Assembly: GCF_029893805.1 (NCBI RefSeq)
Contig: NZ_JARXYP010000002.1
Span: forward strand, 6,696,001 to 6,760,000
Length of the DNA: 64,000 nt
Reading direction: 5' to 3'
Source of the DNA: Streptomyces sp. SAI-135
GTDB lineage: Bacteria; Actinomycetota; Actinomycetes; Streptomycetales; Streptomycetaceae
Below, piece after piece: positions 5,700 to 55,372 of the stretch; the stretch's first letter is position 1; each line of letters starts with the position of its first letter. The notes under the pieces were generated by a model. That model saw nothing but the letters and a program-made list of their open reading frames with translations. It did not search any database and was not told where the DNA came from. The position numbers and the translations under genes are program-made.

Positions 5700-5832
5700 T
5701 CTGCGGGTTCGGTGGGGGCGGGCGTTTCTGCGCAGTTCCCCGCGCCCCTGAATGCCTGCGGCGGCCCGTTGCGGTCCGGTGGGGGGGCTCGTCCCCTTGC
5801 CGCCGTGCGCGACTGCCGGTCCGTCGTGGGGG
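5700..5832 (+). repeat. Dispersed modular intergenic element, copy 1 (short form)
   Basis: This fills the gap between the stop of the leftward toroid-like gene (5833) and the start of lhr. It contains the 20-bp core CGCAGTTCCCCGCGCCCCTG at 5731-5750, preceded by a GGTGGGGGCGGGCGTTT block. Downstream modules are CTGCGGCGGCCCGT, GGTCCGGTGGG, and a GTCCCCTT...GTCGTGG block ending right before the stop codon. The same modules occur in the same order at 21848-22212. In the minus-strand transcript the core can fold (GGGGCG against CGCCCC), so a terminator role for the leftward gene is plausible. Confidence 0.7.
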
Positions 5833-21785: not shown

Positions 21786-21847
21786 GGCGGTGATCCTGCC
21801 AGGGGGTGTGGGGGGCTGGCCACCTCCGGCGGTTGGGCCGCTTCTTG

Positions 21848-22212
21848 TGCGGGTTGGGTGGGGGCGGGCGTTTTTGCGCAGTTCCCCGCGCCCCTGAATG
21901 CCTGCGGCGACCCGTGACGGCTTCGGTGGGGGCTTGTGTAGCGCGTGCGGTCCGGTGGGTGGGTCGGTGCCGGGGTGGGGGGTGTCCGTCCTCGGTCCGG
22001 CGGCTCGGCTGCTCCATCTGTCCTCGGTAACGGACGCCGGCCGCTGCGGGCGGACACCCCCCACCCCGTCCCCTTCGCGCCGTACGCGGCCAACCGGCCG
22101 TCGTGGCGTGCGGTCTGGCGAACGGTTCGTCGTGGCGTGCGTGACTGCGCCTACCCAGGGGCGCGGGGAACTGCGCGAGCGGCCCCCACCGGCCCGCACC
22201 CGCCCCACAACC
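21848..22212. repeat. Dispersed modular intergenic element, long form (copies 2 and 3, inverted)
   Basis: The 440-bp gap contains no gene. The 20-bp core CGCAGTTCCCCGCGCCCCTG is at 21877-21896 (plus) and inverted at 22156-22175 (minus). Between them an 18-bp perfect inverted repeat lies at 21971-21988 and 22051-22068, around a 62-base loop. GTCGTGGCGTGCG occurs twice near 22103 and 22127. The modules CTGCGGCGACCCGT, GGTCCGGTGGG and GTCCCCTT...GTCGTGG repeat the order seen at 5700-5832. The overall form, inverted ends plus an internal hairpin, is MITE-like, but no transposase or target duplication is evident. Confidence 0.7.
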
Positions 22213-22227
22213 GAACCCGGCACCCCC

Positions 22228-23457
22228 CTAGGCGCCCCGCTCAAGCACCTTGGCGCCGTCCGCCGACGGCTCCGTGGCTCGGGATGTGCTCCCAGAGGGC
22301 TCGCGGCGGGACGTCAGTCTCGTGGCGAGGGGTTCTGTGTAGCGGGCCGTGAGGGGGCCGAGGATGACCAGGATGAGGACGTAGGCCGTGGCCAGGGGGC
22401 CGAGGGAGGGCTCGATGCCGGCCGAGACCGCGAGGCCCGCTATGACGATCGAGAACTCGCCGCGGGCCACCAGTGCGCCGCCCGTGCGCCAGCGGCCCTT
22501 GGGGGAGATCCCGGCCCGGCGGGCCGCCCAGTAGCCGGTGGCGATCTTCGTGGCCGCGGTGATCAGGGCCAGGGCGAGGGCGGGGAGCAGGACCGGGGGG
22601 ATGCTCGCCGGGTCCGTGTGGAGGCCGAAGAAGACGAAGAAGACCGCGGCGAACAGGTCGCGCAGGGGGCTCAGCAGGGTGTGGGCGCCCTCGGCCACCT
22701 CTCCGGAGAGGGCTATGCCCACGAGGAACGCGCCCACGGCCGCGGAGACCTGGAGCTGCTGGGCCACGCCCGCGACCAGGATCGTGAGCCCGAGGACGAC
22801 CAGGAGGAGCTTCTCCGGGTCGTCGCTCGACACGAAACGGGAGATCAGTCGGCCGTAGCGGACGGCGACGAAGAGGACCAGGCCCGCCGCGCCGAGGGCT
22901 ATGGCCAGGGTCAGGCTCCCGGCCAGCAGGCCCGCGCCGGCCACGAGGGCGGTGACGATGGGCAGGTACACCGCCATGGCCAGGTCCTCCAGGACCAGGA
23001 CGCTGAGGATGACCGGGGTCTCCCTGTTGCCCACTCGGCCGAGGTCGCCGAGGACCTTCGCGATGACGCCCGAGGAGGAGATCCAGGTGACGCCGGCCAG
23101 GACGACCGCTGCCACCGGGCCCCAGCCCAGCAGCAGGGCGGCCGCCGCTCCGGGGAGGGCGTTGAGGGCGGCGTCGACCAGGCCCGAGGGGTAATGGGCC
23201 TTGAGGTTGGTGACCAGGTCGCTGGCCGTGTATTCGAGGCCGAGCATCAGGAGCAGGAGGATCACTCCTATCTCCGCCCCTATCGAGACGAACTCCTCGC
23301 TCGCGCCGAGCGGGAGCAGTCCGCCCTCGCCGAAGGCCAGGCCGGCCAGGAGGTAGAGCGGGATGGGGGAGAGGCGGAAACGGGCGGCGAAGCGGCCGAG
23401 GAGGCCCAGGCCGAGGATGATCGAGCCGAACTCGATCAGCAGGACCGCGGAGTGCAT
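22228..23457 (-). CDS. CPA2-family cation:proton antiporter (KefB/KhtU-like)
   Basis: The 409-residue integral membrane protein has about 12 helices. It begins LLIEFGSIILGLGLLGRFAARF and contains the family core GAEIGVILLLLMLGLEYTASDL, VTWISSSGVIAKVL and LSVLVLEDLAMAVYLPI. That last segment carries the acidic residues of the ion-binding site. GGALVARGEFSIVIAGLA is the usual late conserved helix. There is no C-terminal RCK domain; instead a separate TrkA-C protein is encoded 5 bp upstream. This two-gene layout matches KhtTU-type K+/H+ antiporters. The exact cation is not determinable. The start ATG is at 23455-23457. Confidence 0.9.
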   Translation of the reverse strand: MHSAVLLIEFGSIILGLGLLGRFAARFRLSPIPLYLLAGLAFGEGGLLPLGASEEFVSIGAEIGVILLLLMLGLEYTASDLVTNLKAHYPSGLVDAALNALPGAAAALLLGWGPVAAVVLAGVTWISSSGVIAKVLGDLGRVGNRETPVILSVLVLEDLAMAVYLPIVTALVAGAGLLAGSLTLAIALGAAGLVLFVAVRYGRLISRFVSSDDPEKLLLVVLGLTILVAGVAQQLQVSAAVGAFLVGIALSGEVAEGAHTLLSPLRDLFAAVFFVFFGLHTDPASIPPVLLPALALALITAATKIATGYWAARRAGISPKGRWRTGGALVARGEFSIVIAGLAVSAGIEPSLGPLATAYVLILVILGPLTARYTEPLATRLTSRREPSGSTSRATEPSADGAKVLERGA

Positions 23458-29264: not shown

Positions 29265-29360
29265 GGGTTCGGTCGTGGGCCGGTGCGGGTTGGTGGGGGC
29301 TGATCGCGCGGTTCCCCGCGCCCCTGGCGGGTGTCCGCAGCGGTGCTCATCGGCGCCGGA
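29265..29360 (+). repeat. Dispersed intergenic element, copy 4 (core only)
   Basis: Core at 29307-29326 (one mismatch to the other copies, A to G), preceded by GGTGCGGGTTGGTGGGGGCTGATCG. It lies past the leftward argG stop and upstream of the PP2C gene, the same placement as copies 1-3. Confidence 0.65.
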
Positions 29361-36152: not shown

Positions 36153-36837
36153 GCGGTGCGGTGAGACCGGCCCCTGCGGCCGACGTCCACCGATCCGGGT
36201 TGCCCTGCCGGGCGGCGACCGGCCCTGCTGACCTACGGCGAGGTCCTACCGGTCCGAGATCGATCCCGATTCGGCCTGCGGCCTGCGGCTTCCGCCGTCC
36301 CGCGGTCGGCCTTCACTGGTCCGCGTCAGCCTCCCCGGGCCGTGACCGGTCCCTACTGGCCTGCGGCTGCCTCTGCCGTCTCGCGGCCGACCTCTGCCGC
36401 TCTGTGGCTGGTCGCCGCCGATTAGCGGCTACTCTCCTTCGGCCGGCGGCAGTCCCCGGTGTCTGGTGGCGGGCCTTCTCCGGCCCGCGTCGGCCTCTGC
36501 TGTCCTGCGGCCCTCTCCGTCGGCCTGCGGCGGCCTCAGCGTCCTGTGAGGTGCCTTCACCGGTTCGCGTCAGCCTGCACCCGGCCGAGACCGGTCCCTG
36601 ATGGCCGGCGTCCAGCGTCCACCGCCCGGTGAATTGCCTCTTCCGGCCCCGTCGCTCCGCGGGCCGACGGAGGCCGCCGCGATCAGCGTCCTGGGGGCCT
36701 GTGGCCAGTCCCCATCCGGTCCGCGGCAGCCTCCGTCGGCCCGCGGCCGGTGCCCACCGGGTATCCACCGGTCCCACCGGTATCCATCGGCCCGCCGCCG
36801 ACCTCCACCGGCCCGCGGCCGACAACCCCCGTTCCCT
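36153..36837 (+). other. About 690-bp noncoding stretch with degenerate GGCCTGCGGC-type repeats before dapF
   Basis: No frame has a believable protein. The sequence is built from imperfect, shuffled modules such as GACCGGTCCCTACTGGCC / GACCGGTCCCTGATGGCC, GTCCGCGTCAGCCT / GTTCGCGTCAGCCT and CGGCCCGCGGCCG. It is unusually long for this region. Confidence 0.6.
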
Positions 36838-55210: not shown

Positions 55211-55372
55211 TCGGCGGGCCGGACCGGGCCAGCACCCCGGGCCGGCCGGACGGCGGCGAACCAGGACCTGTTGCGGGCGGTAGCGAGTGGGTGCCCGCAA
55301 TACCAGACAGAACAACGTGCCACGGGAACAACGGGGCACTTCAGGGCGTTTTCGCCCGTACAGGGAGGCGGC

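What the first reader, a model, noticed from the sequence alone, without database searches (positions are those of the whole stretch)
21848..22212. Inverted pair of the dispersed core around an 18-bp hairpin: a MITE-like or RNA-structured element
Two cores in opposite orientation (21877-21896 and 22156-22175) flank an 18-bp perfect inverted repeat (21971-21988 / 22051-22068). The nested symmetry over about 330 bp would make a very large cruciform or RNA hairpin. I find no protein coding. The core recurs four times in 64 kb, always just past the 3' end of a leftward gene. The core is widespread in Streptomyces from memory, but a function is not, to my knowledge, established.
Basis: partly seen in the sequence, partly recalled or inferred. 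Interest (0 to 1): 0.6.

Follow-up and report, generated by a model that had tools for sequence, protein, structure and literature searches.

The report
Streptomyces repeated structured-RNA element between REP-like repeats
The odd palindrome is one copy of an apparently unnamed, Streptomyces-specific repeated element whose long hairpin is preserved by matched mutations on both sides, is present in up to about 27 copies per genome at old shared sites, and is kept uniform within each genome; what it does is not known.

Summary
In detail: two inverted copies of the dispersed core flank an exact 18-bp inverted repeat (0 in 8 shuffles). The core occurs 179 times in this genome. The whole ~370-bp unit recurs 16 times, most copies 80-89% alike to the window copy. 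It is a composite. The outer arms are a REP-like repeat. The middle (window 21898-22090, minus strand) is a separate ~195-nt element found in 61 of 199 sampled Streptomyces genomes, with one weak match outside the genus and none in Rfam. Its long hairpin shows strong compensatory change (11 pairs changed on both sides; 71 cells against 13 shuffled). The G-U/A-C asymmetry (59 to 2) points to the minus strand as the functional one. Sites are old: all 16 have orthologues in other species. Yet the nearest relative of 67 of 67 copies is a paralogue in the same genome and never the orthologue, which means concerted evolution. Copies stay out of the outer chromosome arms and lean head-on to replication (166 to 63, not independent). 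A recent MITE insertion and a RAYT-driven REPIN are not supported. The best account is a strand-specific structured repeat, recognised in folded form and homogenised by gene conversion. Its function, and whether it is transcribed, remain inference.

The parts
21840..22213 (.). Whole composite element (REP-like arm, structured-RNA unit, right arm with inverted REP-like core); 16 copies in this genome
   Evidence: BLAST of 21838-22232 against own genome, 80-89% identity over most of the length; centre 26-mer 16 times, none with 1-2 mismatches
21849..21896 (+). Left REP-like arm; core GCGCAGTTCCCCGCGCCCCT at 21876-21895
   Evidence: (179 exact copies of the 17-mer, 0 of the reversed control)
21898..22090 (-). 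Structured-RNA unit, about 195 nt; RNA 5' end at the high coordinate (GCCGCGTACGGCG), 3' end at the low one (GCCGCAGGCAT)
   Evidence: boundaries from copies of other species that lack the REP-like arms
21950..22076 (-). Long hairpin covered by covariance model R1
   Evidence: model match 127.9 bits, E 1.8e-26; compensatory changes
21971..21988 (.). Arm of the exact 18-bp inverted repeat
22051..22068 (.). Arm of the exact 18-bp inverted repeat
21989..22003 (.). Inner stem with conserved mismatch, internal loop and bulge (partner 22032-22050)
   Evidence: nearly invariant in 63 and 62 aligned copies
22032..22050 (.). Inner stem, other side
22004..22031 (-). Apical loop: variable in sequence, nearly fixed in length (28-31 nt in the canus/lincolnensis clade)
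22088..22227 (.). Right arm: unit of about 98 bp that is tandemly multiplied (period 102-110) in other copies; holds the inverted core 22157-22176 and runs up to the TAG stop of the antiporter gene
5730..5790 (+). Core followed by a truncated piece of the structured unit (ATGCCTGCGGCG at 5752)
29306..29325 (+). Solo core with one mismatch, between argG and a PAS/phosphatase-like gene

Best explanation
It is a dispersed, non-coding, structured repeat of Streptomyces. Its central ~195-nt unit works as a strand-specific folded nucleic acid, most likely RNA of the minus strand: a long GC-rich hairpin with invariant inner stem, mismatch, internal loop and bulge, and a variable apical loop of near-fixed length. 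In this lineage each copy is bracketed by REP-like core units and the composite behaves as one. SHOWN: repeat family, conserved paired structure and its strand, old shared sites, within-genome homogenisation, origin-proximal distribution. INFERRED: the folded form is recognised by a trans-acting factor that holds the inner stem invariant; copies are homogenised by gene conversion between them; the element acts mainly as a REP/ERIC-class repeat that is passively carried or mildly useful, not as a leader or terminator for a particular gene.
For: Sixteen near-full-length copies in this genome; 14-27 in six close or sister genomes. Covariance model R1 finds the unit in 61 of 199 Streptomyces genomes; a class-wide sample gives one weak match outside the genus. 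98.5% of cells are paired, 11 pairs have changes on both sides, 71 cells against 13.2 shuffled, and slid structures give at most 14. G-U 59 against A-C 2 on the minus-strand reading. All 16 sites have orthologues by flanking genes; nearest neighbour of 67/67 copies is a paralogue in the same genome, 0 orthologues, and orthologous pairs are no closer than random pairs. Gene orientation around copies is mixed, so no fixed cis role. Fold z-scores -5.0 and -6.3.
Against: No promoter-like motif lies upstream of the unit in 207 copies, so transcription of the minus strand is not shown. The + strand of the window folds to lower energy (-254.7 against -230.8), so the strand call rests on the G-U/A-C asymmetry alone. 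Alignment A2 was fitted to the model's structure, which favours pairing, though the unfitted A1 also covaries. A single-stranded DNA hairpin would give a weaker version of the same asymmetry. No binding partner was identified.
Confidence: 0.6

Rival explanations
1. A REPIN/BIME-type element: inverted REP pair moved as single-stranded DNA by a Y1 (RAYT) transposase.
For: Inverted core pairs at 72-310 bp and many solo cores, high and very uneven copy number between genomes (0 to 737) as in REP families; solo cores near gene 3' ends.
Against: No Y1_Tnp in this genome or in the genomes with 737, 372 and 131 cores, while genomes with none have several. Conserved structure lies in the centre, which occurs without the left core in S. 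lincolnensis.
Confidence: 0.12
2. A MITE: non-autonomous DNA transposon with core-bearing terminal inverted repeats, spread by a transposase in trans.
For: Inverted ends, non-coding, many dispersed copies, inconsistent orientation to genes.
Against: Sites shared across species (16/16, 24/25, 24/26), and paralogues closer than orthologues, the opposite of what old separate insertions give. Ends differ between lineages. No autonomous partner found.
Confidence: 0.12
3. A host-functional, polar chromosome element (for replication, segregation or recombination) acting through a fold on one strand.
For: All 229 copies in 15 genomes lie in the inner part of the arms (median 0.29, max 0.77 of the origin-terminus distance); minus-strand reading is head-on to the fork in 166 against 63. 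Deeply conserved sites and invariant inner stem.
Against: Copies are not independent; the bias is clear in the clade of this genome and G229 but absent in G007, G049, G168. 138 of 199 Streptomyces genomes lack the unit, so it is not essential to the genus.
Confidence: 0.15
4. Transcription terminator or 3'-end RNA-stability element of the neighbouring genes.
For: REP-like cores sit near gene 3' ends; strong GC-rich hairpins.
Against: Composite copies sit in convergent, divergent and tandem gaps alike; conserved internal loop and invariant inner stem exceed what a terminator needs.
Confidence: 0.12

Closest known systems
ERIC / IRU elements of enterobacteria
   Same: Dispersed intergenic imperfect palindrome of >100 bp, conserved centre, either orientation to genes (from general knowledge)
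   Different: No sequence relation tested or expected; here covariation, a strand call, composite REP-like arms and concerted evolution are shown
REP / BIME / REPIN families (PMC3116915, PMC3733652)
   Same: The core is a short palindromic, extragenic, high-copy repeat, single, tandem or in inverted pairs
   Different: No RAYT/Y1 transposase tracks it; centre is a separate structured unit; PMC3733652 does not mention Streptomyces
Mobile/repeat sequence candidates of the 50-genome ncRNA survey (PMC11109978)
   Same: Structured motif in many copies with inconsistent orientation to genes; S. avermitilis was one genome surveyed
   Different: The named example MRSC-65-2 is from diverse phyla; the list of 250 candidates was not readable here, so this family may be among them unnamed
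Correia/NEMIS elements of Neisseria
   Same: Short dispersed repeat with inverted ends that can be transcribed and fold (from general knowledge)
   Different: No target duplication or RNase III processing shown here

Membership tests
REP/REPIN with RAYT | Short palindromic extragenic repeat in high copy | tested here: met
   core: 179 exact copies, reversed control 0
REP/REPIN with RAYT | Y1 transposase (RAYT) in genomes with expanded repeats | tested here: not met
   PF01797 absent from G000, G059, G032, G001
REP/REPIN with RAYT | GTAG or CGTC tag at the hairpin foot | tested here: inconclusive
   no GTAG beside the core in the solo consensus; CGT(C) lies 14-18 nt away in part of the copies
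MITE | Terminal inverted repeats, non-coding, multicopy | tested here: met
MITE | Target-site duplication and empty sites in close relatives | tested here: inconclusive
   site filled in close relatives (seen in G325, G221, G172, G267, G173, G254), no core in species with 85-88% gene identity, but no clean empty site readable
MITE | Orthologous copies closer than paralogues | tested here: not met
   0 of 67
Known Rfam RNA family | Match to a curated covariance model | tested here: not met
   no match at gathering score or at permissive threshold, only chance miRNA hits
ERIC-like dispersed palindromic repeat | Intergenic, imperfect palindrome over 100 bp, conserved core, either orientation to genes | tested here: met
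Conserved structured RNA | Compensatory base changes beyond controls | tested here: met
Conserved structured RNA | Transcription of the predicted strand | not testable with these tools
   no expression data held; no promoter motif

The most novel reading that the evidence does not exclude
A strand-specific structured element that is re-copied in place into fixed, origin-proximal chromosomal sites (RNA- or ssDNA-templated conversion, homing-like), or one kept by the host as a polar chromosome element. Either would be a non-coding family with concerted evolution across about 25 unlinked loci and a replication-strand bias.
Probability: 0.22. Interest if true: 0.85.

Novelty: new variant of a known kind. 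Interest (0 to 1): 0.6.

Why it matters
Long repeats of this kind are scattered over Streptomyces chromosomes and seem to be unnamed in public RNA libraries. A covarying, strand-specific unit shows that at least one of them is under selection for its fold. Concerted evolution at about 25 unlinked, orthologous loci means copies exchange sequence often, which bears on genome stability and on how repeats persist in bacteria. The model R1 and the site lists make both questions directly testable.

Tried and rejected
Rfam search of the window and of the element alone: nothing. Y1/RAYT partner: no correlation. Plasmids: seven single partial cores; phages: none, so not a plasmid or phage element. Printed core sequence in papers: none. 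First RNAalifold on all 190 canus-clade copies gave an ambiguous fold because those copies are too alike at the stem; more distant species resolved it. Simple empty-site reading failed because distant relatives have unrelated spacers of varied length. Closing helix of the ~195-nt unit: pairs but is mostly invariant, so unproven. A match in another family (G492, E 2.8e-6) was not followed and is probably chance.

Full report
Observation. The two cores, their opposite orientation and the exact 18-bp inverted repeat are real; core coordinates are off by one base. Four core matches in 64 kb compare with 0.06 expected, and no shuffle gave an 18-bp inverted repeat at this spacing. The region lies between the 3' end of a cation/proton antiporter-like gene (stop at 22228) and the start of a TAXI-type solute-receptor-like gene (about 21785), both leftward (gene names are my reading of the translations).

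What repeats. The 17-base core has 179 exact copies in the genome (92 plus, 87 minus; reversed control 0) and is absent from the first 1.55 Mb of the chromosome contig. Among 61 genomes of the genus (G000 included) it ranges from 0 to 737 copies. Most copies looked at are solo units of about 55 bp next to gene 3' ends. In addition the whole window element has 15 further copies, most of them near full length. Alignment shows a left core, a strongly conserved centre and a right arm whose ~98-bp unit is tandemly multiplied in several copies. The 26-mer in the centre occurs exactly 16 times, with no copy at one or two mismatches.

The centre is its own element. The 30-mer of the centre was found in S. 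canus, S. lincolnensis, S. griseorubiginosus, S. pseudovenezuelae, S. bicolor, S. curacoi and others. In S. lincolnensis and G347-type copies it stands without the left core. In more distant species the flanks are other local repeats. The shared unit runs from GCAGYCGCGYACGGCG to GCCGCAGGCAT on the minus strand, about 195 nt, window 21898-22090.

Structure. On 63 copies, mostly of the canus/lincolnensis group, the hairpin pairs in 97% of cells with 33 double-changed cells against 10 shuffled, mostly at one pair. A covariance model (R1) found the unit in 61 of 199 Streptomyces genomes, and in a class-wide sample only in Streptomyces apart from one weak match. On the wider set 98.5% of cells pair, 11 pairs have changes on both sides, 71 cells against 13.2 shuffled and at most 14 for slid structures. 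Read as the minus strand, non-Watson-Crick cells are G-U 59 and A-C 2, which points to that strand. The inner stem, a mismatch, a 5x2 internal loop and a bulge are nearly invariant in the canus/lincolnensis group; in more distant species the bulge base and two inner pairs vary. The apical loop varies in sequence but keeps 28-31 nt in nearly all copies of that group. Folding energy does not pick the strand.

Evolution. Flanking genes show that all 16 sites of this genome are shared with other species; 24 of 25 in G221 and 24 of 26 in G347 are too. Yet orthologous copies are no more alike than random cross-species pairs (85.0 against 84.4%, 77.4 against 77.8%, 79.4 against 79.3%), while paralogues within a genome are 87-92% alike and flanks 86-91%. 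For 67 of 67 copies the closest relative is in the same genome; none is the orthologue, though 53 have one. This is concerted evolution. Gene conversion is the simplest cause; repeated replacement at the same sites is not excluded. The window site itself is filled in close relatives (for example L133-L137, L139) and shows no core in species whose genes are 85-88% identical.

Placement. Gene orientation around copies is mixed, which argues against a leader or fixed 3' role. With dnaA as origin, all 229 copies of 15 complete genomes lie in the inner 0.77 of the arms, median 0.29, and the minus-strand reading is head-on to the fork in 166 against 63. Copies in related genomes are not independent and some genomes show no bias, so this is a lead rather than a proof.

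Interpretation. What is shown is a family, a fold with its strand, old sites and homogenisation. That the fold is read as RNA, by a protein, and what follows from it, is inferred. A RAYT-moved REPIN fails its partner test and a simple MITE fails the orthologue test. A published survey that included S. avermitilis lists 250 mobile/repeat candidates (PMC11109978); this family may be among the unnamed ones, so novelty is claimed only as not named in Rfam and not found in the papers searched.

Noticed in passing
36657-36746: A second exact inverted repeat of at least 18 bp within 100 bp in this window.
   Followed up: no
55266-55350: nrdJ RNA (RF03034), 78.8 bits, the only Rfam match in the window.
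   Followed up: no
5730-5790: Core followed by a truncated piece of the structured unit, probably the remnant of a lost composite copy.
   Followed up: partly
L381, L410-L412 (G049): Another dispersed repeat, CCTCGTCCTCAAACGCCGGACGGGCTGAAATGCCGGGACCGGCGTCCAGAGG, sits beside the structured unit in that species, in place of the core.
   Followed up: no
L007 and G000:C2:2689575-2690047, 4480617-4481158: The right-arm unit is amplified in tandem with a period of 102-110 bp, ending in an inverted core.
   Followed up: partly
L177, L200, L233: Long runs of G in draft contigs exactly at the element, likely assembly or sequencing failure at the hairpin.
   Followed up: no
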